Assembly (NCBI RefSeq): GCF_963678975.1
Contig: NC_089281.1
Location: 24,470,765-24,534,764 of the forward strand
Direction: 5' to 3'
Source: Dysidea avara
Lineage: Eukaryota > Porifera > Demospongiae > Dictyoceratida > Dysideidae
Length of the DNA: 64,000 nucleotides
Part shown: positions 10,391 through 63,643 of the stretch, piece after piece
Numbering within the stretch: position 1 is the stretch's first letter
Layout of the letters: each line of letters opens with the position of its first letter
Program-made: the position numbers and the translations under genes
The notes under the pieces: generated by a model
Databases searched by the model: none
Told to the model about the DNA's origin: nothing
Seen by the model: only the letters and a program-made list of their open reading frames with translations

Positions 10391-13300
10391 GTGTGTGTTG
10401 TGTGTGTGTTGACCATCAATAGATAGTTAGTACATACCACAATCTTGTTGAAACAAGCCATAGCAAGCCCCACCATGTGAGAATAGGTAGTGTTGCTTGT
10501 ACCATGTGGTTAGGAAATTTAACTATCAAACATTATAACCAAAGCCACCTAAGTGCTAGCCAAGCAACTTCACTATGTCTATCTAGTATCTACCTACAGT
10601 AATTGATAGCTAGACACAAAGTGTTATAATTTCACTTATACATTAGATCATTTTATTACTTCAGTTATGTGATTATCATTCCCACACGTAGGATTATGAA
10701 CATTTGTTCTTTGCATGATTAGTGACTGATCAAATCTGTGCAAGCAGGAGCTCATAAGCGCCGCAATGCACCTTCGGCGCTTATAAGCTCCTGGTACAAG
10801 CAAGCAAGTCAACCAAATTGCAATAACCATCTAAACAAGGCAATAGGGACTGAAATTGCCTCTAAACTATATTTCCTTGTCATTATGGTATACGGTGTTG
10901 TGGTGTGTCACTCCCATAAACTGTATCTGTGCTTGGGACTTGATGATTGAGTGACAAATGATGAACTGGTATATGTCAAATTCTACACTGTTCAGTGCAA
11001 GATGTAACTTAGTGACCAAGCCAAGCGTGGCTGGGTGATTACCCTGTACAAGGTTGAGTGCTCAGACAGTACTGTAACCTATAATGAACTGACACTGGGC
11101 TGATTAATATTTGTACTTTTCCAACTGGGGTGATTCTAGAAGAGGAAGAACAAAAAAAAGCTATTAAATGGCTTCCTTTCCCTTAAACCTCCATACAGAA
11201 GAATGCCTTTTCTCAACTGGAAGATATCCATCATATGTTTTGATAGGCATATTCACACCAGCCTGTTGTAAATGATTGATGGCTATTTACTAGAGGACCC
11301 CTAGATCTTCCCAAGTATATAACATGTGCTCAAATCCCCTCTAGTTATAGACCTAATCACTACACACGTGCTCAAGTGATATCATGTAAACTTGTTCCTT
11401 GAGAAAAATGTAATGTTAGTAACTGTGACTAGTTACGTTATTGAATTTGCTTTAAGCACTATCTTTGTGTGTGTGCGTGCGTTTGTGATCTGTGGTGTGC
11501 TGTTTACCTTGCCACGTGGTTGCTATGACCAGTATTAGTCTCATACCCAGCTTAGCCCACACTAATATAGCGTGAACACCGTCTGGTGACAATAATCGGC
11601 GGAAGTGTGGTCCAGTCAAAAGTTTGGCTGGCCAATCAGGATTGATGAGTTACATAGTCACAGGAATGTATTGGAAGTTTATACGATTTTATTAGAAGGT
11701 TTCACGAGACGTTTGTTGGCAAGTCATGGTTTCTGATCTCGCCTTATCAAAACTGACAATTGTGACTAATGTTTCACCAGAAATGAAACAACTGCTTCTA
11801 GTAAATTGCCCTTTTCTGAATATAACTTTATCCATTTGGGTCATGTGACATGGTTACCATGTCATACTGGTCTCAGCCTTCGGTAATAGTGCAAATACCA
11901 TCTGGCGACAATGCTTGAATTTCTTGAGCCAAGAAATGCAATCCAGCCAAAATATCGGTATGACAAGAGTTCACAATAGATACTGTTGGCTAGTTTATTG
12001 TTACCATTTAATTAACATATCAAATGTAAAAAAGGCTTTACTTTTTTAATTTAGTTATATTATGCCCTAGCTGTGCCCTATATAATATTAAACTTTGCTG
12101 GCTCTCGTGAATTTTACTGGTACTAAGAAAATGGTACACATAAAATCCTTTGATCTTTGGGAGACAATGAGGTCTTTAAATCACTAAGAGGTTCTCTAAT
12201 ATGGTTTAGAGACCTCAACCCGCAATCAATCAATCCATCTACTAGTATAAATACACTCACACTGTTTTCTAAATCAGTTAGAAACCACCCACTCAGATCG
12301 TGGCTTAAAAACCTCTCGGGTTTTTTAATTCATGAAAATCCTCGTATTAGGTCTCTTACTAATTTCTGTGTTCAAAATTAGTCAAATAGATTTGTGTTGA
12401 TGAGTTGACAGTACACATATATGAATACATGTAAGTAATATGTGTGTTGAAAAATTGGTATTGCAAGTATGAGTTTTCGTAAATGTTAACATTTTTTCCA
12501 AAAGTTTGAGAGCTATACAAATCAACAATGATCAAATCACAGACAGGTAGTGGATGATTTAACAAATATTACAGTGAAAACAGTTTTGCAACTGTACAAA
12601 ATAAAGTTTACCATTACAAGTGGATAGCTATTGCAATCCTGTATGTTTTCTCAGAAGCTTATAGCACTTTGTATTCACTGTACTGTATTGAAATCCTCGA
12701 GCAATAGAACTTTGGAAATTACATACATTGAATAGCAAGAGTACACACACACATACACTGTATGAGCTTACCTGATGTTGTGGTCTTTACAAACTGTAAG
12801 AAATCTTAGTAAAGAAAATTGTGGCTTACTGTAGCTGTGTTGTTCACTTAGCTATTCACTGGCAGCATATTTAATCCTCCATACAAGAATTCTGAGTACT
12901 CATGACTCCATCAATTCACATGCTATAGTGACTATTGCATCAAAAAGGATTAGTCTATGCAATGTCACTTGGTAGGCATGCTGGATTAATTTCTTCAGTG
13001 GTACTGTACTCATCCCTGGTTGTACCAAGTTTGTGGGCTGGTGTGAACAGAGTAGAAAGTACATCCAACCTTCTCCTCACTCAATTTTCTAACAGATTTC
13101 ACACTTGCACACTTTATTCAATATACCACACTGTATAGCGTGGGAGGGGGGGGGGTATTTTCAAGAAGGAAATTTTTGCAATTTTCGTGGATTAGCAACT
13201 TTCCACGAAACCCATCAGAATCCGTAGCTCAATCAAATGAGTATGATAAGATACTGAAGAAGCGAAAATTTCCCCTTGAAATTTTGGGTGGTGGCAATCT

Positions 13301-16140
13301 GCAAAAAATCCCCCCCAAAAATCCTGTTATTTGGTATATTGCAGTAAGTCCATTATTCACTCTTGGTTTTAGGTGTCATAGACAGAAGATAATAGGGTGG
13401 TTGAATGATCCTTTAGATGAATTAACACTGACAGAAGCTGTTCTAGGAGAGGATGCTAAGAACTACCATGCTTGGCAGTACCGCCAGTGGGTGATCACGA
13501 CATTCTCTCTCTGGGACAAAGAACTTGATTATGTACACAAACTGCTAATGGAGGACATAAGAAACAACTCTGCATGGAACCAGCGACATTTTGTGATCGC
13601 TAAAACAACTGGCTACACCAGTGAAGTGTTGAGCACAGAAGTGAAGTATGTGGATAACACTGTGTGTGTACTAATTCAAATGGGGTACAGTTTATTGTGA
13701 ACAAGGAATAGGTTCAGGTTGTAGTCAGAAGAGGTGGGACATGCTCCTGCTTGCTTGAATTGTATATTTCTGTGTGGTATTTAATGTGAGACTCAGTAGT
13801 CATAATGTTAAACTATGTAACAAATCTTCAGTTCTTCTTTGGACTTCAGTTCCACTTATAGTTAAAGGTGACACCTGCAGTATATGAATTTTAAACAATT
13901 TTTATTTTCGAGAATATCCCGGCCCAATAGATTGTCACATTTGTAGTAATACAGGCATAGAATATTTTCTGGATTTGTGGAAGACTTATAAGTCTATACA
14001 CAGTGGTACTGTAATATAGTTAGACGTGCATATTGTGTATATTTATATAACACTGTAGGTATACAATGGACTTTCTACGTAGAGCACCTAGCAATGAAAG
14101 TGCGTGGAATTATCTTGAAGGGTAATAATGTGTATATGTGTGTAAATCATGTGTGTGCGTACATTATGCAAGTGTTTAATTGTTTACTTTGGCAATGGAT
14201 TTACATATGTCTTCATTCAATTTGAATTGTGTGTACAAACCAAACAACCAAAACAGCTGCAAGTTGATCGCTAGGTACAGCCATGCAATGTTTGCCACAT
14301 TTGATTAGCTTTCAGTAGTTTTTGTACATCCTTTACCACAGCTCACTTATTTCAGTTTAGATATCATTTAGCAAGCACCCATATATGGGTACAAATGGGT
14401 TTGGGTTTTGAACTTGCGTTTATTCTGCACTTAACAGCAGTCTGTTTTCTCTGTACTCTAAAACAACACTCGCTTTAGAACTTACTTTTTAAACCAGTGC
14501 TTTCATTGACGGGTGGTAGACAGTGGCTTAATGGGACCTTTGGCATTGTCTTTGGAGGCTTGTACATGTACAGTGGTTGAATCCTCATGGACTATTTTGT
14601 CCATATTTTATTCCAAATGACTGTTCTATTAGAGTATTTTGACCATCACTGTCTTGGTACAGTTGTTTGGTCTTGCATTTGTAATTTTAGAATGTTATAC
14701 TGAAGTTTACTAGGAAATCAGTTAGTTTCTTCCTATAAGGCAGTTGTCCATAATAACAATTGCTTTTTCAAATTCACAAAACATCATGCATGACATTTTC
14801 CAGTGCTGTAACCAAATTAGATGCTTATGTTAATCCTCCATCTTGATTTGGGGTATGTAATTAAAGCATACATGAGTTGCTCTTATGTTGCAAAGAGGAA
14901 TTTGAACAGTACAAAGAAAACAAATCAAGCTATGAAGACACATCTAAGAAGCAGTCAAAGTATAGGAGCTCTAACTACAGTAGTTGTAGAAGTTTTCCTC
15001 ATTTCAACGTTGAATGATCCTTCCCCTTAAACTGCCAAGCGAAGTACGTGAAGCCAAATTTTCTTGAGTGTATCTAGTCAACCATGTATTGTGTATAATT
15101 ATGTAATTCATGGGATTTCTAAATCAAATTTTAACAGTGTGCACACCTAGATATAATTGGTTAATTACCATAGACACCACCAGCCATCCCAGTGGTCCCA
15201 CTTAAACAATAAACACACTATGTGGTATATAGACATAATGCATGTGTCAGTAGTAGAATAACAATTATTGTATTCATACAAATAAACTATTGGGAAATCC
15301 CTGGGATTTCTATTACCTGTGGCTATATACTGACATAGCAAATTGTTCATATACAAAAAAGACTAGGGATTCACCCTTCATTGTCTTCTCAATTAATGGA
15401 TTATTGTAGAATTCCACCTCGAGGAATTTACAAATGCAGTGAAACAGCTGAAGCCTCTTATGTCAAGTACATAGGTCTGCTTCATTAGTAGGACCACCCA
15501 TGTCCCAAACATAGCTAAGATATATAAAATATACTTAACTCATTAATAAGAAGTGACCACATCACCTCATAAAGGCCACCAAATTATCAAGGTCACAATT
15601 TTTTTGGTCACATGGGTATTCGTATTTATATGTTTGACTATATAGTAAATAACTTTTAAACATGTTTCCTTGTAATTCTTTGCTGTAGAATATTTAAGGG
15701 TCACCAAATGAGTACCCATCCTGGACTGAAGGAATTTTGTGCTGAGCTCCAGTCACTACCGGTACCATCACCCCCTCTGCTGTGCTTCATGGTCAGTTTG
15801 TATGAAGAGGAGGCCAGTCTACATAAGGATACTCCACAAGGGAAACAGAGCCTTGACAACGCATTGCAGGTAGTTTTAAAAATACTATCATGGTCTTTCG
15901 TGTGACAGTTGTGAGGTAGCTTTTCTTTACACTGCCTGAATTTTCTTCTTTTTTTTTTAATTGCTATCTTTATAAAGTGATAATTCAAAGCCATACTTTT
16001 ATATTGTGTGTCAAACTTTAATTTCTCTCTCCCTCCAGATATGCCAACAATTAGCTGATAAAGTGGATACAATTCGCAAGCTCTACTGGGAGTACACAGC
16101 TAAGAGGTTGACTGGACTGTTTGGCACTGTATCATCATAA
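6460..16140 (+). CDS. FNTA: Protein farnesyltransferase / geranylgeranyltransferase type I, alpha subunit
   Basis: Alpha subunit shared by the two CaaX prenyltransferases; with a beta subunit it attaches farnesyl or geranylgeranyl to C-terminal cysteines of Ras/Rho proteins and lamins in the cytosol. Seven exons: 6460-6598, 8500-8614, 10235-10339, 13373-13645, 14059-14121, 15689-15869 and 16039-16140. They splice to 325 residues, close to the lengths usual for the family. The PPTA repeats are evident: [71 protein letters not shown] and [10 protein letters not shown], each with the Trp/Arg core. The start [13 protein letters not shown] precedes the conserved [20 protein letters not shown]. The protein ends [20 protein letters not shown] plus a short tail. 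One codon is split at almost every junction and each join restores a conserved residue, which supports the exon model. Confidence 0.96.
6599..8499 (+). other. FNTA intron 1
   Basis: 1.9 kb, AT-rich. Short ORFs on both strands look like chance. No repeat family recognised. Confidence 0.6.
8897..9247. repeat. MITE-like element with ~30-bp terminal inverted repeats
   Basis: The left end TATGTACATGTTGAGCTGGA is mirrored by TCCAGCTCAACTTGGTACATA at the right end. Both arms continue through GATCCT and a run of A's. Length 351 bp with no coding capacity, so a non-autonomous DNA transposon is likely. A solo fragment of the same arm lies at 2956-2983. No clear target duplication could be fixed. Confidence 0.65.
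9472..9488 (+). repeat. Dispersed 13-mer motif copy 1
   Basis: TGTTCTATTAGAGTATT. The core TGTTCTATTAGAGTA recurs at 14622, 31243, 42382 (reverse) and 57823 (reverse). Confidence 0.6.
10340..13372 (+). other. FNTA intron 3
   Basis: 3.0 kb. It starts with a (GT)n tract (about 10359-10411). It includes the GGAGCTTATAAGC hairpin at 10745-10792 and two related blocks around 11510-11640 and 11870-11970 that share the phrases ACCRTCTGGYGACAAT and CAGCCAAA. Near 13140-13320, G- and C-rich ends flank an AAATTTTC-rich segment that may be another hairpin element. No coding exon seen. Confidence 0.5.
10745..10792. repeat. Short hairpin repeat (GGAGCTTATAAGCGCCG family)
   Basis: The arms CAGGAGCTCATAAGCGCCG and CGGCGCTTATAAGCTCCTG enclose CAATGCACCTT. 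Half copies with the same TTATAAGCTCCTG end occur at 32799-32824 and 35853-35878, so this is a dispersed family. Confidence 0.6.
14122..15688 (+). other. FNTA intron 5
   Basis: 1.57 kb. Contains motif copy 2 (14622-14640) and no recognised gene. A region near 15470-15600 resembles degenerate transposon ends (repeated TTCATTARTAGGACCAC-like text) but cannot be assigned. Confidence 0.5.
14622..14640 (+). repeat. Dispersed 13-mer motif copy 2
   Basis: TGTTCTATTAGAGTATTTT, extending the match with copy 1 to 17 bases. Confidence 0.6.
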
Positions 16141-36800: not shown

Positions 36801-39800
36801 ATCCGCCACTAGGAACTGATTCGCTGATAATTTTTACGACATCACTGAATCATCAGTAGTGCCATAGAGTAGAAGAGAGCTGAATGGATAAGCTCACATA
36901 TTTGTTGATTGTATCATGTATCCAACATTTGCTAGCAAGAAGTATTGTACAAACAGTATGTACATTTTTGAATGGATTGTTTAAGCAATTTGCACTCATG
37001 ATAGTGGCAATGAATGGCAGGAGGACTGCTTTGAAATTACTGGACAGATCACTCACACACTATCTGTGAAACATACAGCCTAATCAACTACACTCTTTGC
37101 TGAATGCAGAAGTACTACATATTTTGTATACAAGTTTTTGAACTTTCCGAGGTATAACAGTATAATCTATCCATAATACAAAAGGTCTTTGTTCTACATG
37201 ACAGATTCTGGACTTAGATGATGTGAGTGACGATGAATGTTAACAGTGTGTTTCCCGCCAGTTTAGATAACTGCTACTAAGTATCATACTTCTAGGCCAC
37301 ATTAGAAATCATTTCAGTTTTACATACACAATACACATTCATATATATTCAATTTCTTTTTGTTAATTATTGTAGTACTTTTAGTACCTAACATGTCAAC
37401 TAGTTATGACTACGATACTACTGAACATGTATGCTGACACTGCATGTCAACATCATTCAAATGGTAAACTGTTTGCGCATGTATAAAGTATTTATACCTG
37501 CTTGTAAACACACACAATCTTACTAATACATATGAAATGTCAACTGTTTCAATACATTATAAAATATTATTTTCTGTGTATCACAGCTTGATACTTATTA
37601 TAGTCTTGTAGCCAATCAAATGACTTGTAGCTATAAGAGATTCACCACCCACACAATCTCTTCATCACAGAACACCAACTTTTCTTTGCTAGTTCACCAA
37701 ATGAACAATATCTGCATTGATGTAAACAGTTGCCACAACGGTATACACTATACGCAAGACTGTCAGAGATATTGCAACAATAAAAATGAAATTGAGCATT
37801 CACTGTGGTTTGAACCACAAGAATATGATAACTCATCTGCCAAATGCAACACTGGATTCCTAAAATGCATTGCAAGGTATATATTATGCAATGCTCCTCC
37901 AAATTTACATACAAATTATTTATTTATTTATTACTGTGCAAAGCCTCCAAGTAGAGTATAAAAGCACAGGTAAAAGTTAGCTAGTTTACAATAAACTGAT
38001 TAGTTACTCATGTCTAGTTTCTCTTTAAACTGTTCATGATAATTATGATCATCACTTTGAGAATTCCAAATTGTAATTGAAGAGGGAAAAATAGGAATTT
38101 ATTCTTATCATTGGTTGTTGAAATCTCATTTGGTGACCTCTGGTGTAGTGGTCAGATGAAAACGGTATAAGATCAAGACACACAGTAGTGTGTCGTGCGG
38201 CCCAAGAAGCCGACGTGCCACCCGTGAGTATATTAACAGGAAGAAAGAAAATGCAATTTTCACACCTATGTAGCTCTGTGATCCCTTATCCGATTGATCG
38301 TCTTTTGATGGAGATCACGTGACGTGGTGAACATGGCGTCTCCTCATCGCCCTCAAGAGCAATACGCTAAACCGCCGCCGTGTTGGCCACGTTTGGATGA
38401 CATTCTTCGTAACCGTTTAGCCTGGCTACACCACTCGATCGGCAGGGATGTGTTGAGTCCTGCTGAAGGTGCTGGAGAGTTTTCTCACATTGTGAGTGAC
38501 CTTCTATTGGAGTATGAAGTGATAATTTTGCCAACCTGTAACGGACGCCATCGTCCTCGTAGAATGGAAACAATTTTGAAGAACCTTACTGACATGAAGA
38601 ACGCTTCTCGTAGACATATGGAGGGCGATGACGGGAATTTTATTACACTGGTGCGAACGCACAATAAAGTTTTAAAATGCCATCGCCGCCAGCAGATCAC
38701 TAGGGAAATGTGTAAGAATGAGCAGGAGTTCCGAAAGAATCCCTGGCAGTATGTTCACAAGAAGTTACAACCATCTAATAATCCTGATCCATCTTTCGAT
38801 CATAGTTCTGCTACCAGTTACTTTAAGGAAACTTACTCTGATAGTACAGTTACTTACAACAAATTACCGGATTGGACCCATGAATTTATACCTGATTGTG
38901 ATCCGTCATTATTCAACACAGAGAAGATCACTCCTGGATTAGTGAAATCTACATTGAAACACTGCTCTATGCAGTCTGCTCCAGGAATGGATGGCATCAC
39001 CTATTACCATCTCTACCACCTTCCGTCAAGTCATCATTTCATGGCTACCCTGTTTAATAAATTACTTGAGACAGGAACTGCTCCACCTAACTGGGGAGTT
39101 GCCCGGTTAAGGCTTATCCATAAATCTGGTGATACCAGTGATCCATCTAACTTCCGTCCAATTGCCCTTACTTGTGTGGTAAGGAAGTTATTTCATAAGA
39201 TTCTGAGCCGCCATCTTGAGATTTACTTGAGAGCAAACAATGTTATAGATACTAGTATTCAGAAGGGTTTTGTTTCTGGCTTGCCGGGTGTGTTTGAGCA
39301 CATATACTCTCTATCTGCTATCATGGAAGATGCTTTGACAAATAGAAAGCCACTGATGATGACTTTCCTCGACTTGAAGAATGCTTTCGGCTCTGTGTCC
39401 CACCAACTGATTTTTGATATGCTGGAAGCAGTAAAAGTACCACCTTCTTTTAAAGATTACGTTCAATCTTTTTATTCACAGTTGTTTGTCATCGTTAAGG
39501 GTAATTCTTGGGAAACAGACCAGATACCTTTTAAACGAGGTGTTTTTCAGGGAGACACACTCTCTCCTATAATCTTCCTACTTGTGTTCAACCCTGTTCT
39601 CAAGCTAGCAGAATCATTGAACTCCTCCCACGGCTATCAGTTTCAGTTGAAGATCAAGGACACTGAGATGCTTCCACCTGTTGGTACCTATGTGTATATA
39701 AAATGGACTGAAGACAATGGAGAATTGCCAGGATGGTACAAAGCTTATGTTGATGAGTACTACACAGATGGATCTTGTAAAATTGTGTATAGTGAAGATA

Positions 39801-42800
39801 ATGGACAAGTGGTATATGAAACAGTTGATCTCAATAGGACGCAGTGGCTACCCTGTTCTAAAAGAGCTAGGAAATTCGTTCCTCTTGAGACAGATCCGGT
39901 CACCAGTAAAGCTAAATGGAGGCCTTCATTGAAAGTAGTTAACTCCAGTGAGCATTCAGTGATGGGTTATGCTGATGATGTTACGTTGGTTTCTGATAAC
40001 TTTGATATACATGTTAGTGCTCTTCAAACAGTTGACCGTAGAGCATGTGACTTGGATCTATCTTTCAAACCTGTGAAGTGTATATCGTACTTATTCGACG
40101 GCTCTAAGTGTTTGCAGAAAGGAATAGTTTTATCTAAAGGTGTTACAAGGTCAATTACTAAAGGCGGCACAAAGTTTTTAGGAAAGCTTATTGGTGTATC
40201 ATTAAGTACTACAAAGAGATCTGCTAATAAACGTATGGTAGGCCGGATAACAGAATTACTATCAGCTACTGACACCCTGCGCATACGTGGAGAATACAAA
40301 CTTTGGATTTATCGAAACTACATTTTATCACTGTTGCGTTTCCACCTTAGTGTGGATGCAGTTACACCTACTGCCATATCGAAGATGGAGTCTATGGCTA
40401 CTCGCTACTTGAAAAGATGGCTACATCTACCAAGAAGTGCAACACGTGTAGTCCTTTATTACCCGGGGATATGCTGCCCAAGTGTATCTAATGTTACAAG
40501 AGAGGCCAAGATTAGCTTGTTGTCATGTATCAGTGCTTCCTCAGACCCTAAGCTCCAAGAGCTGGGCGTACATCTACATTTAGGGCAAGAATTTCTGCAA
40601 TTTCAGGATTGTGATTATTCCATCCTATCTACAGCCAGGAAGCAACTCTCTTCATTACCTACTGCGAGATCATTGTATGTGACAGCTAAGACTCAACTAC
40701 TTAGTGAGGTTAAATCTACCTCTGAGGATCATCTTCAAACACTTTCTGTTCAGTGCAAGTTTGCAGACTCTGCCAAGCTTGAGACCTCTTGTCGAACTTG
40801 GAACCGATTACTATCCAGTATGCATCCTGGTCAGCTGTCATTTCTTTTGCGGGCGGCTTCGGACACTCTGCCAACTGCCATGAACTTGCGAAGGTGGAAT
40901 ATACAATGTCATGCAAAATGTGTACTTTGTGATTCCTCACGTCCAACTACTGCTCATGTCTTGGGGGGCTGTCCGGTTGCGTTATCTCAGGAAAGGTACA
41001 CTTATCGACATGATTTAGTCATTCAGTCTTTGGTCGACAGTTTCATCAGGGTTTACATTGACTTGCCCTATATCCGGGTTTATGCTGACCTTCCTAACTT
41101 GCGAGCCAGTGAGTCACCCCCATCTACACTTCCACCTAATGTGATTGTGACCCCCTTTAGACCAGACATTGTTATCCATAATACCGTCACTTCTAGTATA
41201 CTTTTATTTGAACTGACATGTCCATTGGACAGTGCCCACCATCTTGAGCAGGCTAGATCTCGCAAACAAAATAAGGCTGAATACCACCAAATTCTATCAG
41301 AGCTAGATCGGTTAAATGTTACCAACTTTTATGAGACTCTTGAGATCAGCGTTTTAGGTCACTTCCAGCAATTTTCAGTCACTAACACTTACAATGTACT
41401 ACATTTTATTGATAAGGACATCAATATCACAAGGTCACTGGTTCGACGGATGCTGGATGATGCCTCGAAGGTTTGTATGACTGCATCCCAGAGGATTTTT
41501 ATGGCAAGGGATTGCCGAGATTGGTTGTGATAATGTACTTGTAATTTAATATTTTTGTTTTGTTTTGTAATCGTTGTTTTTGTTTGTAATTGTAATTACT
41601 TTTCTCCCTTGCCATGCCCACGTTGGTATCACTTGATCACCAGCCTTGTGGTCGCATGTGACCGAGGGTTACTGAATTTGTAAATGTATATACATGTCTC
41701 ATTTATTATGATGGTTTCAACAACATGCTAGAGAGGTGCCGGCCAGCAAGGGGAGTCTACACACCAAATTTGAAGAAAATCACTCCAGCCATTTCCGAGA
41801 TACGAGCGAACAAAATTTCGTTTTAATTTCTTCGTTTTTTTCTTCTTCTACTTCATTTCGCACACTTCGCAAAATCCGCCATAAAACATGAATACATGCT
41901 CGGATCGGGCTGAAATTTGGCACACTTAAAGGGCTCATTAAGGCGGATCTCCGTACCAACTTTGGTAGGAATCCGATGAACATTCATGGAGTTATGACCA
42001 ATTATTTGCGTAAAATAAGGTCGAAGGTCTGTCACGCCTACAGGGTAAACTCCTTTGAGGAATCAGTTGAAAATTGATATGTAGATGGAGCAACCATCGT
42101 AGGAGTGCCTTTTTGTGGTTTGAAAGGAATCGGGATAAAGACCATGGAGATATGACACAAAACCCGACCTGTGTCAAAATTATGCAATCGATTTTTATGA
42201 ATAAAAAAAACTATTAGATTCCGTGTCTACCAGGCAAACCGCTTAGAGCAACGAGCTGAAAATCAGTATGTAGCTGGAATAATCCTCATAGAAAGTCCTT
42301 GCAGTAGTACAGAAGAATCGGATTACAAACCACTGAGTTATGATTCGAAAGACAACTACATGTAACAAATGCGAGATCGAGATACTCTAATAGAACAGTC
42401 ACCCTAATAAAGTATTCAGCTGCATTTATAATTTACTCAATTATATTACATTACAAGTTATTCTGTAGGGAATTCAGCTACAAACAAGTCACGCTGTAGT
42501 CAGATCAGCCAGAAGAAGGTACATAATAGAGAGTTCAGCTACAAAGAAACCATCATGTAGAGAGTTCAGCTCAAACAAATTACCCTGTAGAGAGATCAGC
42601 TAGAAGTTATCTTGTAGAGAGTTCAGTTACAAAGAAACAATCATGCAAAGAGTTCAGCTGCAAACAAATCACCCAGTAGAAAGTTCCGCTATGAACAGAC
42701 CACACTGTAGAGAGTTCAGTTAGAAAAGCTGAAGTCACATTGTAGAGAGTTCAGCTACAAAGAAACTACCATGTAGAGAGTTCAGCTGCAAACAAATCAC

Positions 42801-45800
42801 CCTGTAGAGAACTCAGCTACAAACAAATATGCCCTGTAGAAAGATCAGCTAGAAGAAGTTACCTTGTAGAGAGTTCAGCTACAAAGAAACCACCATGTAG
42901 AGAGTTCAGCTGCAAACAAATCACCTGTAGAGAGTTCAGCTAGAAACAAGTCACCCTGTAGAGAGATCAGCTAGAAACAAGTCACCCTGTAGAGAGTTCA
43001 GCTAGAAGAAGTCACATTGTAGAGAGTTCAGCTACAAAGAAACTACCATGTAGAGAGTTCAGCTGCAAACAAATCACCCTGTAGAGAACTCAGCTACAAA
43101 CAAATATGCCCTGTAGAAAGATCAGCTAGAAGAAGTTACCTTGTAGAGAGTTCAGCTACGAACAGATCACCCTGTAGAGAGTTCAGCTACAAACAAATCA
43201 CCATGTAGAGAGTTCAGTTACAAAGAAACCACCATGTAGAGACATCAGCTGCAAAAAAATCACCCAGTAGAAAGTTCAGCTATGAACAGATCACCCTGTT
43301 GAGAGTTCAGTTAGAAACAAGTCATCCAGTAGAGAGATCACCTAGAAGTATCACCTTGTAGAGAGTTCAGCTACAAACAAATCACCTGTAGGGATTTCAG
43401 CTGCAAACAAATCACCCTGTAGAGAGTTCAGCTACAAAGAAATCATCATGTAGAGAGTTCAGCTGCAAACAAATCATCCTGTAGAGAGTTCAGCTATGAA
43501 AAGATCACCCTGTAGAGAGTTCAGCTATAAGAAGTCACCTTTTAGAGAGTTCAGCTACAAAGCAACCACCATGTAGAGAGTTCAGCTGCAAACAAATCAC
43601 CCTGTAGAGAATTCAGCTACAAACAATTCTCCTGTAGAGAGACCAGCTAGAAACAAGTCACCCTGTAGACAGATCAGCTAGAAGAAGTTACCCTGTAGAG
43701 AGTTCAGCTGCAAACAAACCATCCTGTAGAGAATTCAACTACAAACAGATAACCCTGCAGAGAGTTCAGCTAGAGTCAAGTCACCCTGTAGAGAGAATCC
43801 TGTAAAGAGTTCATCTACGTACAAGCAGATCACCCTGTAGAGAGTTCAGCTACATTTCAAGCCACCCAGTAGAGAGATCAGCTGTAAATTATCCTGTGGA
43901 GATTAATTGACATGTAATAAATATATGCAAGAGTTCATAATATAATGAACTCTTGATATATGCATTATATATATAATTTGTACATTTACTGATAAAATCA
44001 GAATGAGTTAAGTATTTATAAAATCTGCTTCATCTTTTTCTTTTTCCTGTGATAAAGAAACATATATAGGTTAAAAAGCCCCAAAGCTGGCCATAGGCCG
44101 GCTTTGGGGTATACAAATACAAAAAGAAGTGAAATCTAATCAAAAACAGCCAAGCTATAAAAAAAGGAGTGCGGCCCTTGAAAAGGCTATAATGAAAAAA
44201 GATGTGAAATCCAAGGTGGCGGCCAAGAAATGGCTGTGATGGTAGGTTAATGGTAAAAATTTTAATAACAACAATTCAGGTGAATTTGGTGCCGCTTGGT
44301 CTTGGCACAAAATTCACCTGAATTGTCATTATTAAAATTTTTACCATTAACCTACCATCACAGCCATTTCTTGGCCGCCACCTTGGATTTCACATCTTTT
44401 TTCATTATAGCCTTTTCAAGGGCCGCACTCCTTTTTTTTACAGCTTGGCTGTTTTTGATTAGATAGGTATTGGCAGGTATGTCGATGAGGTTGTGTATGA
44501 TCTAGAGTAGGGCATGAACAAATGTTAAATTTTAACATTCGAACATTCTTTAATTTTCCTTAACAAATGTTCGAATGTTGTTACACCCACTCAATTAGTA
44601 CAATAGTAATAATTTTACATTATGAACATGTACCAAAGATAGGTTTGCATACATTTCTGAAACCTTTTACCTCAAATTAATGTTAAAAACAATCATATAA
44701 AAGTAAACCTACTCTTACAATGATAATAATTGAGTGTGGGCGAGATAACCAAATGTTCGAATGTTGAAATTTACATTTGAATGTTAAGCTTATCGAACAT
44801 TCTAACGAATGTAGAGGTGTGCAATGACAAATTTAGACTTATCTCGATATTTCCTTTTGAACTTATCTCGATTATCTAACATCTATATTATAAGACTGAA
44901 AAGCCGTCCGTCCGTCTGTCTGCATTCCATTTGATGTCAGGCATGTACTCTCGAACCGCTGCGCGTTTGGAAGCGTCTTTGGCGTCACGGAAGCGCTGAT
45001 TATTGAGCTCAACAATGACGTTTTCGAAAAGTTCGTGCGAGCTATCGTTAGTCGTCTAGGGGCCGTTGAAGGCAGGTGTGTAGACTAAAATTCGCTTGAA
45101 TTCTTTCTATAAACCGCATGCAAACCGCAAGTAAACACCTATCTCAGTCCATTTGTAAAAGTCTTTATAATACTAAAATATTGCTGTAACAATGTGGTGA
45201 AGTAGATGGGTTAATGGTTTAGGTGCCTGCCTTACGTGCGCGAGGTTGTGGGTTAGAGTCCAGCTGGTGTTAATTTTTTTTTTCCGTTTTGGGCACCTTT
45301 TCAGTACACCTTTTTTCGCACTGTACTGCATGTGTTTTTGCCAACTGTACACACGTGATATTTCTAATTCAAATTCATTTGATGTGCTGTGTAAGCATGC
45401 CGGAGCATGCCGCCTAAGCGAAAACGATCGTCTACTTTTTGTGCGTTTCAAGCAAAGAGACGCAAGCAGAACCAAAGATTGGATCCAGAGAAGAGACGGG
45501 AAGAAGCATAACGACAAATACTGCGCCGCCAGGAGGCTTCAACTGGAGCTACCACCTCATCCAGTGCTAGGTGTGAACTGGACTCACAACAGAGACGACG
45601 ACAACGTGACGCAGAAGCCCATCGTGTGGCCCGCCAGGACGAAGAAAGAAGATCACAGGAACGGATCCACGATGCAGCTGCCCGTCGACTTGCGCGTGCG
45701 GACCCGGCCAGAGAAGAACAGCAGCGTGATACAGCTGCCCGTCGACTTGCGCGGAGGGAGGAGCAACAACAAGATACAGCTTCCCATCAACAAGCTCGAG

Positions 45801-48800
45801 CTGATCCACTCTACAGAGCTCTGGAGCAGCAGGCTAACACAGCACGCAGACAACAGGTACGTGCAAGCACACACCCAAGCCTTAGGGGGCTTAACTATCA
45901 GCCACACAACTTCTTCAACACTACAGATGTAGGCACACTTAGTGTAGAATGCACACACTGCGGCGCATTAAAATTTCCCCAGGAGACCGAATCCCTTTGT
46001 TGCTTGAAGGGTAATGTCCAGTTAGAGGCATTTCCACAGCCCCAGTCATTCTTGAGACACCTGTATGAAGGTACAAACACAGCAGGTAAACATTTTCTAG
46101 CTAGCATACGTAAGTATAATAGTGCATTTCAAATGACAAGCTTTGGCTGTAACGAGATAACTATGGCTGGCTTCAATCCTTCTTTTAGAGTACAGGGTCA
46201 AGTCTATCATCGTATAGGTAGTTTAGTTCCATCAACAGGTGAGTCTCCTAAATTTTCCCAAATTTATTTTATCGACAACCAGCAAACTGAAGTAGCTACA
46301 AGATGTGGGATAGTTGATGGGTTAAGGCTTGACATAGTTAGGGGTATTACTGAGCTTTTGCATGACGATAATCACTATGTTCAACTTATTAAGGTAGCTA
46401 AAGAAATATTTGAGCAGCATGATGAGCCAGCAAATATTAGGGTAGTGATTAATGAGAACAAACAGCCTGTAGGAGAGCATGCTAGGAGGTACAATAGCCC
46501 GATGTGTGATGAGGTAGGAGTGCTAATGCCTAATGATAATGTAAATAATAGGGACATAGTTTTGCACTATAGGGATGGGTCTTTGCAGCACATTTCTGAA
46601 CTTCATAGGGGGTATGATCCTTTACAGTATCCTTTACTCTTTTCTTATGGCACCGATGGATGGCACATCAACCTGAAATTGGCTAATGGTAGGAAATTGA
46701 CAGCCATGGTGTATTACCGCTACCACATCATGGTCAGGCAGCAAGTGCCTGTATTGCTTAAGGCTAAAAGGCTTTTCCAGCAATTCCTGGTTGACGCCTA
46801 CTGTAAGATTGAAACTGAGCGCTTACAGTTTCTCAGGCGTGAGCAAAAGGCACTACATGCTGATTGCTACCAGGATTTGCGGGATGCAATGGTAGATGGG
46901 GATGGTGACCCCAGGAATGTTGGTCGTAGGGTGATCCTACTGTCGTCATTTACTGGTGGACCACGCTACATGCATGAGCGTCAGCAGGATGCAATGACCT
47001 ATGTTAGGAAGTATGGCCACCCCGACCACTTTATCACCATGACCACCAATCCTAATTGGCCAGAGATTAGGAACAATCTACTACCAGGTCAAGAGCCTCT
47101 GGACCATCCAGACTTAGTGGCCCGTGTGTTTAGGCTTAAGGTGAAGAAATTGTTAGAGATGCTCACAAAGGAGATGATTTTTGGGAAACCACGGGCTTGG
47201 CTCTACTCAACAGAATTGCAAAAGGGAATGATAATCCAATGGGAGGCAAGTGCATGCTACTGTGTGGTGACTTCAGGCAGATTCTACCTGTCATTCAAGG
47301 TGGCATTAGAGGTAACATTGTTGATGCTTGCCTCAAGCGATCTCATCTGTGGGACAGTGTGGTGGTTAAACAACTACACACTAACATGAGAGTGCACCTG
47401 TGTGGGGATGTGGCAGCTGGACAATTCGCTGAAGAACTATTGGCCATTGGAGATGGGAAGTTTCCTATTGACACTCTACCTGATGTTGTCCAGCTACCTG
47501 ACACCATGGGAACCTTTGTGGATAGCAAGGAGGAACTGGTTTCCAGGGTGTATCCAGATTTGTTCTCTAACTTTAGGGACTTGGCTTTCTGAACACTGCA
47601 TTCTTGCTCCTCTTAACAAGACCACTCATTCCATCAACATGACTCTGGTGGAGCAGTTACCTGGTGACTGCTGTGACTACAGGTCCTTGGACACCATACC
47701 TGATGAATCTCAGGCTGTTCACTTTCCAACAGAATTCTTGAACTCTTTAGAGGTATCTGGACTACCTCAGCATCTTCTCTTACTTAAAGTAGGCGCTCCT
47801 ATTATTATTCTACGCTCTCTAGATCCTCCAAGGGTTACTAATGGCACTAGGTGTGTAGTTACTAAACTGTCGGCTAACACAGTAGAGGCCAAGATTTCTC
47901 ACGGTAGATATGCAGGACATGATATTATAATACCACGCATTCCTCTCATTCCGAGTAACTCGGTTTTGCCTTTTGAATTTAGACGGCTTCTATTTCCAAT
48001 TGCACTTTGCTTTGCCATGACCATTAACAAAAGCCAGGGTCAAACTTTTAAGGGTGTAGGATTAGATTTGACGGACGAAAGCTTCACACACGGCATGCTT
48101 TATGTGGCACTATCTAGGGTAGGTTCAGCAGATAGATTGACACTTTTAATTAGAGGGGATTGCAAAACACGTAATGTAGTCTATAGTGAGGTTTTTAGAT
48201 AGGCAAACACATGCACTTTAGTTAGGTATGTCTGCTGCTACTGCTGCTTTGTGATGTTGTGGATCAGCACCTGTGGATGGTGGTAAGGAAGGTATTATGG
48301 TAAAAAAAATGTATCAGATGGTTGCTTTGTATATTTATGTATGTGTGAAACTATTTATCTTTTCTATTCTTTTGTCTTTATGCATATCCTGGATGGTTTG
48401 CTCGGATGAGGGATGACTGCAGCTACACAGGGAAATGACACGGTCCCGTGGCAGACTGTTCTTCACAACGTGGGGCACGTTGTGAAAATGGGAGCTATTT
48501 ATAGACTTTGCAGCAATGATTTGAACTCTTTCTACACATGCATACAAAGCAGAGTGGAGCATTTTTCGCCTTTTCCTGTGCAGCAAAACAAAAGAAAAGG
48601 CTGGCAGGTTTTTTCCATGAGCTGTCTTGGGCTGGATGACTCAATTTTTTTTGTTTTCATTTATTATTATTTCTTGGTAGCTCCGACTCTGTGCCCATGC
48701 TGTTATATTTTATAAAGCCGTTATATTTTGTCATAACAGAATCGTTGTAGTGCAGATTACAGTAATTCATGGCATGTTTGGTTGATGGTAGAATTTGAGC

Positions 48801-55895: not shown

Positions 55896-56723
55896 ATGCC
55901 TTTGTTAATGATGTGCGGCTTTCCTTGCTCAGGAAAAACTCGACGAGTGGAGAAATTCGTAGAACACGTACGTACGAGCACTGATTTGCAAGTAAACGTT
56001 ATTTTCGACGAGTTTACTACTTTTGATAAGAACACGTGCTACTCTACGCCCAGTATGGAAAAGGTTGTAAGAGGTTCACTCAAATCAAACGTTGAAAGAT
56101 TGTTAAGCAAAGATTGTTTAGTGATTGTTGACTCTCTCAACTACATCAAGGGGTTCCGATATGAGTTGTACTGTGTAGCTAGACAACTGAAAACAACTCA
56201 TTGTGTTGTTCAGTGTGAGTGTGCTGCACCACAGGCCAAGGACTGGAATAAGAGTCGTGACAATAAAGATGACTGTTATACAGATGAAATAATGGATGCT
56301 TTGATCATGAGATTTGAGCCACCTGATGATCGTAACAGATGGGACAATCCTTTGTTCATTGTTCTGCCTGAAGATGAGTTCCCAAATGGAGGAATCTTAG
56401 ATGCATTACTTAAACGAGTGGCGCCTCCACCAAATCAGTCAACACAATCAAAGCCACTGTCTTCAGCTGGATTTTTACATGATCTAGATCGTAGAACTCA
56501 AGAAGTGATATCTGCAATTATGGAAGGTCAACGGACAAGCTTTGTTGGTGATTCTATCAATATTCCAAATTGCTCAGAGAAATTAACTCTTAATCGACAC
56601 CTCACCATGGGAGAACTAAGTAGATTACGACGACAGTTTATAACTTATAGCAAAATGCATCCAGTAGATGATTCAAATAAAATACCTACTCTATTTGTAC
56701 AGTATCTTCAAAATACATTGTAA
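55896..56723 (+). CDS. KTI12: KTI12 homologue (Elongator regulatory ATPase)
   Basis: P-loop protein that binds tRNA and Elongator and is needed for wobble-uridine (mcm5/ncm5) modification; related to the kinase PSTK. Single-exon gene of 275 residues, shorter than yeast or human forms (310-355). The P-loop lies at the N terminus: LLMMCGFPCSGKTRRVEKF. Then come VNVIFDEF, a LSKDCLVIVDSLNYIKGFRY block (Walker B-like, D-S-LNY-KG-RYE signature) and CVARQLKTTHCVVQCE. The tRNA-binding C-terminal part follows, with MRFEPPDDRNRWDNPLF, DRRTQEVISAIMEGQ and LRRQFITYSKMHP. The first ATG lies two codons before the conserved LLMMCGFP, so it is the natural start. Shares a 69-bp promoter with SUPV3L1. Identification is firm. 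Confidence 0.95.
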   Translation: MPLLMMCGFPCSGKTRRVEKFVEHVRTSTDLQVNVIFDEFTTFDKNTCYSTPSMEKVVRGSLKSNVERLLSKDCLVIVDSLNYIKGFRYELYCVARQLKTTHCVVQCECAAPQAKDWNKSRDNKDDCYTDEIMDALIMRFEPPDDRNRWDNPLFIVLPEDEFPNGGILDALLKRVAPPPNQSTQSKPLSSAGFLHDLDRRTQEVISAIMEGQRTSFVGDSINIPNCSEKLTLNRHLTMGELSRLRRQFITYSKMHPVDDSNKIPTLFVQYLQNTL

Positions 56724-59960: not shown

Positions 59961-62506
59961 CACAGTTGCCCACCAATACAGTAATGACATTCAATCATTG
60001 TCAATAAAACTTTTTTCTTGGGGCAGATATTATCAGCCATGGTGGCTCTTCCCTCCACCACTTATTTATGAAAACAGTTATGAAGTCACAAAGCAGACTA
60101 ACTGTGTTGGCTAGCCACACTCCACACTCAATGGTGATCTTATGTAACCTAGTGGTTTACCTGTACTTTAATTTATTTGCAACACATTGGTCAACCAGTG
60201 ACTACCTCTCAATAGAGACCAATTTCTAACCACTACTCACAAACACTAAATTTTTCCCAAGCATTTTTAATGAGTAGGTTTGGTTGTAATTAGTTTAGGA
60301 CTTGACCAATCATCTACCATGTCCTAAAGAACACAAACTTGTTATTGTAACGGAGACTCTGTTCCTTACTTGCCATCTGTGTTCACTTATTTTTATCAGT
60401 TGAATGTGTGGCTGTCTAGTTTGTTATTCCTCTTGATAGGCCATCAGCATTCCTAACATTTGTGTAATGATAATTTAAAGTTTATTAGTTAACATTAAAC
60501 CAGTATAGAAGTGCTCTGAAGCCTTCAGATATGTGTTTTGTCCCATTAGCCAAGTGTTCCAGTGTAGCCATGCATTAGATGAAAATGAAACTGTACGTGT
60601 GTTTCTATAGTGTTTTAACTGATGTTAATCACCTACCACAGTTATCCAAGTGTTGACAAGGTTTCTTTTTACAACTTGGTGGTGAGTTATATAGCATTGC
60701 ACAAGAAGCCTTTCGTTGCTCAGGACACTTGCGCTATCAAAACTCGTATCATGGCTTCTAGCAAAGATATGGCTTGGATAGCAAACTGGTGGGTCAGGTA
60801 TTTTGTTTGACTTTAAACAAGTGCATATAGTTGGAATTTAATGTTCCATAAATAGTTAAAAGCATGATCTCCTTGGTTAGTTTAAGTTAGCCATGTTCTG
60901 CATACATGGAATGAAAGAGTACACAAACACAGTGTCAGAAAAAAGTTTTTTTGGAGGGATTTTTATGTTGTACCTAAATCTAATGCCAACATGTAGCTAG
61001 CTTTGCCACAATCACATCTGATGATCTGATGTGGCTGGCAGTGATAATCTCTTAGCTCACTTGCGGGTGTTCACCTATTATGTCTTTTGTGACCAGCAGG
61101 TGATTTGAGGTTGGCGGTAATCCAATCAGGTCCTCTAAGCTGAGACCAGAGTAGACAATGGGCTGTGCGGCTAATTCACCACCATTCATGAATACATTTA
61201 CTACATTGACAGATCTCATTCTGCTTCATTGCCAATATGTGGGTTGGCGGCTGTCCAAACAAGACCATAGTACTGTAAGAGAGGCCATATCATACTGACC
61301 GGAGAGTGAATCATGTTACATCCTCTATAAGTGTAATACCTTTAGTTTTGATAGCAGCCATTGTATGGTGTGTGTGTACCAATGGACCATATGCCTAACT
61401 GTTTGTCGTTGAAGTCCATTATGTGCTCCACTCATGTACATTAGATGAAAATCACTTACTATCCCTTTGTTTGAACTACTGTAGTCTTACAAATACAGTG
61501 AACTGCTTAAGGGCTCAACTGTTTGGAATGTGATTTGCCTGACCTTGAGTTATTGAATTATCTGTGTGTCTTTATGGACCATTGACACAATCTCTGAAGT
61601 GAACACCGCCAGCAAGGTCAGCAGACATCAAGGATGCTGGACAATTTACAAGGGCCCCCTTGCATGATTCCCCCCTATGTTGCTTCATTGCTTACTATCG
61701 ACACAGGTTACAAAATAATAGGCCTGGACAAAAGACATTGGCAGATCAAGCGATGCACACAATTTGCACATAAAACTTGGGTCACTGTTAACTTGTTTGT
61801 TGAGGTTTTTTGGTAAAGCATGTGATGATATTGAATGAAATTGCTGACTCTAATGACTACATGGTGAATAGCTCACTGGCCTGTGGGATGCGTACGCTGT
61901 TTGTAGCCAGGGAAAACAAGTAATAAATATTTTTTCATGCTCTATTGAGAATTCTAATGGCGGAGAATGACATCGTAGTGTAGAAATTAGTATGTCCATT
62001 ACAAGCAAATGTCAATCGGAATGCTATTTTTGCATATGGTGTGTTGTTCCCTGTTACAAGTGTGTAGTCATCCATAGGTAAGCCTATCTTCCATATTGGA
62101 TGACTGTTGTGCCTTCTGTGACAATTGCTTATCTCATTTTTGATTACCCCATTTTAACAGCAGTTTTACCAACACAGGTTTTTAAACCCAATGTTTGTGT
62201 ACCATGTCACATGCTTTTCTCACATGTTATATTCTTATACTTGACCTGTGGGACACATGAAAGGGATGGTATATGGTTTGTGTATGTAGCTGCTGTGAGG
62301 GTATGGCCTTGACATACCAACCCACATGTTCTGGTTAGTGTGGTTTGGACAATAGTTGACTGTGGTCATAGCAATGGACAGATGGGTCAGGCTTCTGTCC
62401 GCAACCATAGCAGTGATTTTGATATTCAGTGACCACTTGAGTAAACTGTGCAATTGAGGTATTCACTAATGCATCAATTACCTTTACAGTGTCAGGTCTT
62501 TATGAA

Positions 62507-63643
62507 ATGGAGTTGGTGAACTTTGCTAGAGAGGACCTAGGTACTACCATTACCTCAAGCTGTGTGTATGATGACAATTATCCTCCTTCTAACCTCATTG
62601 CTACCGATCGATCACTGCGTTCTAGGGGATATCGGGTTGAACATTTTATCCGTCCACCTATCCAGCTACAGCTAGACTTTGCTGTTCCCATTCGCTTACA
62701 GTCAATCTGTATTCAATTGGGTCAACTTTCTGAGTACTCTACCTCCGTCAACTTGTTCCTACCTAGAACCACAGTGCCTATGAAGATATGTAGTGATATT
62801 GTTCTCAAAGGGAACTCAGTGATTAGATTAATTAATCGAGACTTATCGGATGAACTTATTAAACCACAGACAGCTCTTGGAAGTTTTCTTCATTCTGAGA
62901 AGGAAGAAGGGAAATTAAGTAACCCGCACACACTACTAGGTGTAACCTCACTCATACTGAAAATTGTACATTCTTCCAGCTACCAGCCTCCAGCTGTTAA
63001 GAACCTTGAAGTGTGGGGGTTGTTTGACCACCAGAGAAGATATAACAAAGAGAAAATACAGAAATATTATGCTGTGGTCAAAACGTGGCAGAAGATAGAG
63101 AGGAGTGAAGAATACTTTGTTTCCTCTATGTATATTAGTGGTGCCAAGCCTACACATTCGAGTCAACAGTTAGGCCACCATAGCTCCACCTTGGACACTT
63201 CCCAACATATCAAGTCACTCACCACAGAAGCTAACGACAGAGGTCAGAGTTTCAGTGATAGAATTCCAGATAAGTACTTAGATGAAATCACTTATGAGAT
63301 AATGCTAGTGCCAATGTTGCTACCTTCTGGACATTATGTGGACCAGAGCACAATTGACAAATTTACAAGCACCGAGAACGCTTGGGGAAGGCCAGGCGCC
63401 GATCCATTTACAGGAGTTCCATTTAGCTCAGCTGCCAAGCCGAAATTTTGTGCCAATCTCAAAACTCAAATAGATAAATTTGTGACTCAAAACAGACATG
63501 AGTTATCAAATCTCGGCAACACATTAGGCGATGCTGACCAGATAGAAAAACATTTACACAAGAAAAAACGCCAAAGGGTAAATATTGATGGTGATGAAAC
63601 TCCAGAAAGGAAAAAGCAGAATTTACCTCAATCAGATGATTAA
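62507..63643 (+). CDS. UBOX5: U-box E3 ubiquitin ligase, UBOX5/RNF37-like
   Basis: Predicted nuclear E3 ubiquitin ligase. Single coding exon of 378 residues, opened by an acceptor at 62489/62490. ATG at 62507 is preferred because MELVNFA aligns with the start of vertebrate UBOX5. The N-terminal domain (SRGYRVEHFIRPPIQLQLDF, later KNLEVWGLFD) matches the conserved RNF37 N-terminal region. The U-box is at about residues 252-326: IPDKYLDEITYEIMLVPMLL, PSGHYVDQSTIDK, then WGRPGADPFTGVPF and LKTQIDKFV. A basic KKKRQR cluster (about 352-357) is a likely nuclear signal. Vertebrate UBOX5 (near 540 residues) also has a C-terminal RING finger; none is present here. An AATAAA poly(A) signal lies at 63827-63832. 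Confidence 0.92.
   Translation: MELVNFAREDLGTTITSSCVYDDNYPPSNLIATDRSLRSRGYRVEHFIRPPIQLQLDFAVPIRLQSICIQLGQLSEYSTSVNLFLPRTTVPMKICSDIVLKGNSVIRLINRDLSDELIKPQTALGSFLHSEKEEGKLSNPHTLLGVTSLILKIVHSSSYQPPAVKNLEVWGLFDHQRRYNKEKIQKYYAVVKTWQKIERSEEYFVSSMYISGAKPTHSSQQLGHHSSTLDTSQHIKSLTTEANDRGQSFSDRIPDKYLDEITYEIMLVPMLLPSGHYVDQSTIDKFTSTENAWGRPGADPFTGVPFSSAAKPKFCANLKTQIDKFVTQNRHELSNLGNTLGDADQIEKHLHKKKRQRVNIDGDETPERKKQNLPQSDD

What the first reader, a model, noticed from the sequence alone, without database searches (positions are those of the whole stretch)
38333..41530. Intact non-LTR reverse transcriptase with a Tudor-like domain inserted between palm motifs B and C
Seen directly: one uninterrupted 1065-codon frame with RT motif B (RGVFQGDTLSP), then about 130 residues, then YADD. 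Within those residues, about 446-509 read as a compact Tudor/PWWP-type barrel (VGTYVYIKW...GWYKAYVDEYY...IVYSEDNGQ...W). In the RLE-type elements I know, B and C are linked by a short loop. A chromatin-reader fold inside the polymerase palm would place target recognition (methyl-Lys/Arg binding) next to the active site. That would be an alternative to the N-terminal zinc fingers/Myb of R2-type elements, and no such domains are visible here. The role is inference; the position of the insertion is not.
Basis: partly seen in the sequence, partly recalled or inferred. Interest (0 to 1): 0.88.

Follow-up and report, generated by a model that had tools for sequence, protein, structure and literature searches.

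The report
Sponge retrotransposon with built-in Tudor domain
A family of jumping genes in a marine sponge carries, in the middle of its copying enzyme, a small domain of the kind that other proteins use to read chemical marks on chromatin; the enzyme may use it to choose where to insert, but that has not been tested.

Summary
Window 38333-41530 is an intact 1065-aa ORF of an R2-like (RLE-type) non-LTR retrotransposon, with 133 residues between motif B (QGDTLSP) and YADD. Residues 446-510 form a Tudor/Agenet-type domain: the family profile matches host Tudor domains (HHalign probability 96%, score 49.9; best of 200 column shuffles 20.1), and AlphaFold2 gives a five-strand barrel (pLDDT 92) whose top-ranked structural match is the H3K4me1-bound RDM15 Tudor (1.6 A over 55 residues; tied with Spindlin). 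RDM15's cage aromatics W-Y-Y have counterparts W458, Y469 and Y486, aromatic in 44, 46 and 46 of 46 non-redundant relatives. The 32 insert-bearing sequences in the tree form one clade (100/99); insert-less relatives have 33-39 residues there. All 23 genomic loci read (of 45 matches) carry the insert, which shows purifying selection. Methyl-mark reading and targeting remain inference. I found no report of this arrangement in the open-access papers searched; Repbase was not searchable.

The parts
38314..41725 (+). Full element (about 3.41 kb): 5' end ATCACGTGA, very short 5' UTR, single ORF, 3' UTR of about 195 nt ending ATGATGGTTTCAACAAC(A)
   Evidence: Shared limits of near-identical copies L001-L008, four of the eight 5'-truncated; unlike flanks
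38333..41530 (+). Single intact ORF, 1065 aa (P0001)
   Evidence: AF2 mean pLDDT 89.9
39116..39613 (+). RT domain up to and just beyond motif B (Pfam RVT_1 262-427); motif A FLDLKNAF 39365-39388
   Evidence: Pfam E 2.6e-23; coordinates
39536..39568 (+). RT motif B RGVFQGDTLSP (residues 402-412)
39668..39862 (+). Tudor/Agenet-type domain inserted in the RT (residues 446-510); five strands; candidate cage W458, Y469, Y486; invariant W505
   Evidence: HHalign to host Tudor domains; AF2; structural matches; conservation in 46 non-redundant relatives
39863..39955 (+). Linker between the barrel and motif C (residues 511-541), basic in 44 of 46 relatives (mean net charge +3.5, counted over 512-538)
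39968..39979 (+). RT motif C YADD (residues 546-549)
40799..40984 (+). zf-RVT / CCHC gag-knuckle-like motif (residues 823-884; Cys-His pattern 40907-40972)
   Evidence: Pfam zf-RVT E 5.7e-8
41159..41284 (+). Restriction-like endonuclease core: RPDIV...FELTCP (943-964) and KQNKAEY (978-984)
   Evidence: Pattern found in insert-bearing and insert-less relatives; whole model matches R2 structures best
41531..41725 (+). 3' UTR with terminal TGATGGTT, shared with three other subfamilies, followed by a family-specific simple tail

Best explanation
This is an RLE-type non-LTR retrotransposon of Dysidea avara whose reverse transcriptase carries a Tudor/Agenet-type domain at the turn between the motif-B helix region and the motif-C hairpin of the palm, most simply acquired once in the ancestor of a distinct lineage. 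SHOWN: the domain's presence and position, homology to Tudor at profile level, predicted five-strand barrel, one clade of carriers, purifying selection (I put the identity at about 0.93). INFERRED: the barrel is a separate module on the palm that binds a methylated basic peptide, most likely methyl-lysine on a histone tail, through W458/Y469/Y486. That would hold the RNP on marked chromatin while the endonuclease nicks and the palm primes reverse transcription; the element would be steered by chromatin state rather than DNA sequence. The stated confidence is for this mechanism as a whole.
Confidence: 0.43

Rival explanations
1. The barrel is Tudor by descent but now works as a nucleic-acid or structural module: with the basic linker it extends the palm and grips target DNA, template RNA or the 3' UTR, with no methyl recognition.
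For: The linker after the barrel is basic in 44 of 46 members (mean +3.5). An RT insertion named 4a is listed for Prp8 and group II intron RTs but not for LINEs (passages of PMC5678591), so this part of the palm may tolerate additions; that 4a lies between motifs B and C is recalled. Barrels of ribosomal proteins and a PWWP with ssDNA are among the structural neighbours.
Against: The barrel itself is net acidic in 38 of 46 members, and the cage-position aromatics are among its most conserved residues. The top-ranked structural matches are histone-mark readers.
Confidence: 0.29
2. The domain reads arginine methylation on a host RNP protein (Piwi, Vasa, Sm), tying the element's RNP to germ granules or the piRNA pathway rather than to histones.
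For: The HHalign match is to multi-Tudor proteins of the host, open frames of 3584 aa on C13 and 2134 aa on C10, and TDRD1 appears in the PDB profile and Foldseek lists. That such proteins bind symmetric dimethylarginine on Piwi is recalled knowledge.
Against: The DYGN motif seen in most of the host Tudor domains is not kept: position 489 is G or D in 29 of 46. The top-ranked structures are histone readers, mostly of methyl-lysine. Host single-Tudor readers could not be fetched for comparison.
Confidence: 0.18
3. The segment is an ordinary elaboration of the RT palm (expanded hairpin), with no relation to Tudor.
For: No single-sequence similarity; generic SH3-like barrels are common in structure searches.
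Against: HHalign score far above all 200 shuffles and all non-overlapping ORF windows; agreement of Pfam, PDB profile, AF2 and structure alignment on Agenet/Tudor; cage positions nearly invariant.
Confidence: 0.06
4. A neutral insertion carried along without function.
For: Insert-less relatives persist, so it is dispensable in the wider group.
Against: No insert-less tip lies inside the clade of 32; residues G467, W468, Y469 and W505 are invariant in 46; dN/dS like that of the RT; none of the 133 scored proteins has an intermediate gap.
Confidence: 0.04

Closest known systems
R2 retrotransposon protein (R2Tg 9nl3/9dou, R2Bm 8gh6)
   Same: RT, CCHC knuckle and C-terminal restriction-like endonuclease in one ORF; best sequence and fold match of the whole protein among solved structures.
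   Different: No N-terminal zinc finger or Myb found; no common insertion site; about 100 extra residues between motifs B and C forming a Tudor-like barrel.
Insert-less RLE relatives (such as P0038, P0039, P0043), possibly the HERO clade
   Same: Similar overall length, C-terminal PD...ELTxP pattern in most that reach that far, no N-terminal zinc-finger pattern; one named member, from Branchiostoma belcheri (P0083). HERO is described as an RLE clade with many non-specific elements (passages of PMC4640811) and has a Branchiostoma member (passages of PMC5678591).
   Different: 33-39 residues between B and C, mostly with QGDPLSP rather than QGDTLSP. The HERO assignment is inference: no named HERO sequence was available. 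Whether they are the sister of the insert clade or a grade around it is not resolved.
Single Tudor histone readers RDM15, PHF1/PHF19, SGF29; Agenet of ADCP1/AGDP1
   Same: Five-strand barrel and W-Y-Y cage order.
   Different: Modules of host chromatin proteins; here the domain lies inside a polymerase palm. W-to-Y spacing is 11 residues against 7 in RDM15, and RDM15's Asp643 has an acidic counterpart in only 22 of 46 relatives.
Chromodomain LTR retrotransposons
   Same: In outline: a methyl-mark reader type domain carried by a retroelement. The chromodomain as an accessory domain of LTR polyproteins is in passages of PMC6338049.
   Different: Different element class, fold family and position: inside the RT here; appended to integrase there (recalled).
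BLAG non-site-specific R2-like elements of Blattella
   Same: Dispersed R2-like elements with a lineage-specific extra domain.
   Different: Their extra domain is placed between the zinc fingers and the RT (legends in passages of PMC7650587), not inside the palm.
Telomerase IFD insertion (recalled)
   Same: A functional domain inserted inside an RT domain.
   Different: Located between motifs A and B, unrelated fold (recalled).

Membership tests
RLE-type non-LTR retrotransposon | RT with motifs A, B, C intact | tested here: met
   RVT_1 E 2.6e-23; motifs read directly
RLE-type non-LTR retrotransposon | CCHC knuckle then C-terminal PD-(D/E)xK-like endonuclease | tested here: met
   zf-RVT hit; RPDIV...FELTCP and KQNKAEY; whole-model match to R2. 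Enzyme activity not tested
RLE-type non-LTR retrotransposon | Dispersed copies with 5' truncation and a constant 3' end | tested here: met
   Copies L001-L008, four 5'-truncated, common 3' end
R2 clade | N-terminal zinc finger(s) and Myb | tested here: not met
   No Pfam match in P0001 at E<=10; no zinc-finger pattern in any of the 21 insert-bearing proteins tested. Myb judged by Pfam only
R2 clade | Insertion at one site in 28S rDNA | tested here: not met
   Flanks of the 14 copies inspected all differ
HERO clade | Grouping with named HERO elements in an RT tree | not testable with these tools
   No named HERO sequence was found in the collections used
Tudor / Agenet (Royal) superfamily | Five-strand barrel | tested here: met
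Tudor / Agenet (Royal) superfamily | Significant profile similarity | tested here: met
   HHalign 96.2% with shuffle controls
Tudor / Agenet (Royal) superfamily | Pfam curated cut-off reached by the window's own sequence | tested here: not met
   No Tudor or Agenet match for P0001 or its segment. For other members only best E-values are printed (Agenet 0.0022)
Tudor / Agenet (Royal) superfamily | Aromatic cage residues at the canonical strand positions | tested here: met
   W458, Y469, Y486 aromatic in 44, 46, 46 of 46, order as in RDM15; geometry not seen
Methyl-mark reader | Binding of methylated peptide | not testable with these tools
   Needs a binding assay

The most novel reading that the evidence does not exclude
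An ancient animal lineage of LINE-like elements senses histone methylation with a reader domain built into the polymerase palm itself, so that chromatin state, not DNA sequence, positions or even gates target-primed reverse transcription beside the active site.
Probability: 0.35. Interest if true: 0.92.

Novelty: new variant of a known kind. Interest (0 to 1): 0.77.

Why it matters
How LINEs without a fixed DNA target choose their place in chromatin is, to my knowledge, largely open. Here a candidate reader domain is built into the RT itself, is conserved across a lineage, and can be expressed alone and disabled by point changes at three positions. If it reads a histone mark, it would be a retrotransposon polymerase with a chromatin sensor in its catalytic domain, and a natural starting point for RTs steered by chromatin state. 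Even if it binds something else, a Tudor domain inserted in a palm between motifs B and C shows that this site tolerates a whole folded domain.

Tried and rejected
Rejected: chance frame or chance insert (stop-free copies, family-wide conservation). Rejected: palm elaboration unrelated to Tudor (shuffle controls). Rejected: a simple swap of N-terminal fingers for Tudor, because insert-less relatives lack fingers too. Rejected: R2 membership (no fingers found, no common site).

Led nowhere or against: single-sequence Pfam and PDB searches with the window's segment; NT-C2, LtfC and DUF4225 are weak, unrelated-looking hits. PDB profile search A4: the six best-ranked hits are designed TIM barrels, eight in all, whose repeated short matches add up; set aside as a repeat artefact; 11 of 29 are Tudor/Agenet and ten others are CD47, pIgR, NKG2-D, an adhesin and one unnamed chain. 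In the earlier profile search with A2, 14 matches included catenin and NKG2-D beside Agenet and TDRD1. Target-site duplications: longest shared strings of 4-7 nt, plus 10 nt in L012, which lies inside a tandem repeat; the mean was above that of mismatched pairs (5.36 against 4.72; 5 of 500 shuffles as high), L012 contributing much of it; I do not count this as duplications, but short ones are not excluded. The region search with P0009 returned ten proteins, all RT proteins of the same lineage as far as the B-C gap could be scored. Fetching SH3, PWWP, chromo, PTM-type and Agenet sets of the host as further profile controls failed (machine not answering), so HHalign was controlled by shuffles and ORF windows only, and the 20 Tudor domains come from two host open frames. 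Structure rows not of Tudor type: 14 of 50 (MazF, ribosomal proteins, chains of cyanobacterial NDH-1, Ssl0352). No member was compared with Repbase. The zinc-finger pattern test had no natural positive control, only a made-up string; Myb was judged by Pfam alone. P0081 (Lytechinus) could not be scored for the B-C gap and is not counted.

Dropped rows: one search used 83 of the 126 proteins then held (others lacked a recognised motif B or C, or enough sequence); one search used 52 of 162, reduced to 46 non-redundant; one search left 20 without motif B and 9 without motif C unscored; A1 took 56 of 121. In one search, 3 of the 54 long-gap proteins did not fit the strict Tudor pattern (P0122, P0127, P0136). 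dN/dS: most deeper pairs are saturated in dS, and L018 is a broken copy. In the mixture tree P0037 and three outgroup rows are long branches, and the insert-less group is not one side of a branch.
Full report
WHAT IS THERE. The ORF at 38333-41530 (+) is intact, 1065 aa. Pfam finds RVT_1 at 262-427 and zf-RVT at 823-884. The best solved relatives by sequence are R2 proteins (9nl3, E 5.5e-28), and the AlphaFold2 model of the whole ORF (56 sequences, mean pLDDT 89.9, pTM 0.82) again matches R2 best (Foldseek 9nl3, E 3.3e-35, TM 0.60 by query). The C-terminus carries RPDIV...FELTCP...KQNKAEY, which I read as the restriction-like endonuclease (RLE); the PD...ELTxP pattern recurs in insert-bearing and insert-less relatives. 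So this is a single-ORF RLE-type non-LTR retrotransposon.

HOST AND COPIES. The window lies in a 551-Mb assembly. A published D. avara assembly is 575 Mb (passages of PMC12909245). I take the host to be this demosponge. The protein search of the genome scored 45 matches, a lower bound: some at 91-99% identity, two at 79 and 89%, others at 60-64% and 51-52%. Four copies, this one included, match over all 1065 residues without a stop at 98% or more. Near-identical copies define the element as about 38314-41725, with a very short 5' UTR; four of the eight compared are 5'-truncated. Flanks of the 14 copies inspected (8 of this subfamily, 6 of the 51% subfamily) share no sequence that I could see and no convincing target-site duplication. 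Three other subfamilies end in the same TGATGGTT followed by their own simple tail.

THE INSERT. Motif B ends at residue 412 and YADD begins at 546. Of 162 proteins collected in three searches, 54 have a B-C gap above 90 residues, 79 below 60, none between, and 29 were not scored (looser motifs add one long and ten short). All 23 genomic loci that I read, of 45 matches, have the insert. In trees of the RT core with the B-C linker left out, the 32 insert-bearing sequences among 83 form one group: bootstrap 100 and SH-aLRT 99 under a mixture model, SH-aLRT 95.3 and bootstrap 99 under LG+R4, 0.954 by FastTree. The outgroup rows lack the insert, so one gain is the simplest history, but counts of changes cannot by themselves tell gain from loss, and whether the insert-less relatives are sister or a surrounding grade is unresolved (51.6/81; two changes). 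Members named by their source are D. avara and the brittle star Amphiura filiformis (P0037, a long branch); a named insert-less relative is Branchiostoma belcheri P0083. Most others are unnamed, so breadth and mode of inheritance are open. Between L001 and the 79% copy L018 (itself broken) the insert has dN 0.102 and dS 0.928 over 66 codons, like the RT segment after motif C (0.095 and 0.930); most deeper pairs are saturated.

IS IT TUDOR? The single sequence says nothing: no Pfam Tudor match, no PDB match (four unrelated weak ones). The family does. Members match Agenet most often (8 of 27 segments; 13 of 26 trimmed cores, best E 0.0022), with TUDOR in 1 of 27 and 2 of 26, PTM_DIR17_Tudor in one of each and Tudor_KDM3B in 1 of 26; most other families listed there, matched by one to three members, are unrelated. 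A profile search of PDB sequences gives 29 matches: eight designed TIM barrels (repeat artefact, best E), 11 Tudor/Agenet chains (5zwx, 6ie4, TDRD1, RDM15 7de9, PHF20, TDRD3, FXR1/2; E 0.027-0.99) and ten others (that FXR1/2 and some others are Tudor proteins is recalled). I built a Tudor profile from 20 Tudor domains of two host open frames and compared it by HHalign: probability 96.2, score 49.9. The best of 200 column-shuffled controls scored 20.1, the reversed profile 8.7, and of 25 windows along the ORF only 441-520 and 401-480 matched. Rival barrel families could not be fetched as controls.

CAGE. RDM15 holds methyl-lysine with Trp616, Tyr623 and Tyr641, with Asp643 and Asp645 binding the free protons; PHF1 has a four-residue cage in which Tyr47 and Phe65 lie as Tyr623 and Tyr641 do, and Trp41 stands for Trp616 with another torsion angle (passages of PMC8184781). 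In the insert, W458 ends strand 1, Y469 is near the start of strand 2 and Y486 is in strand 3. Across 46 non-redundant members position 458 is aromatic in 44, 469 in 46 and 486 in 46; G467, W468 and W505 are invariant; the core is net acidic in 38 of 46 (mean -3.6) and the linker after it basic in 44 of 46 (mean +3.5). E488, placed as Asp643 is, is acidic in only 22 of 46, so RDM15's choice of monomethyl-lysine should not be read across. This is what a reader of methylated basic peptides would look like, but no coordinates were available to see the pocket, and no ligand was tested.

HOW IT MIGHT WORK. Shown: domain, place, one clade, constraint. Inferred: the barrel projects from the palm hairpin and holds the RNP to a methylated tail while the endonuclease nicks DNA and the palm extends the primer. 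The absence of a shared insertion sequence fits a non-sequence cue but does not show one. If the domain affects targeting, it was most likely added to a lineage that already lacked the fingers.

LITERATURE. R2 and Utopia elements are described with N-terminal zinc fingers (passages of PMC10499050, PMC4640811, PMC13188248). LINE RT insertions listed are 0, 2a, 3a and 6a, while 4a is listed for Prp8 and group II introns (passages of PMC5678591). The extra BLAG domain of cockroach R2-like elements lies before the RT (PMC7650587: section 17 and passages). A paper on accessory domains in retroelements names chromodomains and does not hold the word Tudor (passages of PMC6338049). Searches for Tudor with retroelement terms gave 0, 1, 5 and 3 papers; apart from PMC6338049 and PMC7650587 I saw these as listings only, so a passing mention in one of them (for example PMC3441728, which holds the word once) is not excluded. 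More general searches on RLE clades and RT insertions listed no title or abstract start on such an element. These cover open-access papers only; Repbase and most subscription journals were not searched.

VERDICT. The finding is real and the domain assignment holds. It is a new variant of a known kind of element with an unusual and testable architecture; the function is inference.

Noticed in passing
window 42527-43795: Tandem array of a 31-bp unit, about 41 copies, some 800 bp downstream of the element. One copy of the 51% subfamily (L012) has the same repeat family on both sides, and L014 and L015 have it nearby; whether this reflects target preference was not tested.
   Followed up: partly
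window 44159-44438: Near-perfect inverted repeat, 135-nt arms 98% complementary with a 10-nt loop; related sequence also occurs near L015. Possibly a foldback or MITE-like element.
   Followed up: no
window 45626-48202: Two ORFs (587 and 266 aa) that read like a broken Helitron-type helicase; the label is recalled from the sequence, not tested.
   Followed up: no
3' ends of this element and of L009-L017, L019-L023: The terminal TGATGGTT is shared by four subfamilies whose proteins are about 51-63% identical to this one, while the tail after it differs: CAACAACA, A-run, CT-repeat, ATCTTCTTC (L018 not examined). Possibly a recognition element for the RT at the 3' end.
   Followed up: partly
P0087 (1426 aa relative): An RT relative with a short B-C gap whose precomputed Pfam domains include PF00443 besides RVT_1; PF00443 as a ubiquitin C-terminal hydrolase is recalled. 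Another accessory domain worth a look.
   Followed up: no
window 3277-4980, 13140-13700, 55896-56723, 62489-63643: ORFs that look like host genes: ankyrin-repeat, geranylgeranyltransferase-like, Kti12-like and U-box-like proteins (labels recalled, not searched).
   Followed up: no
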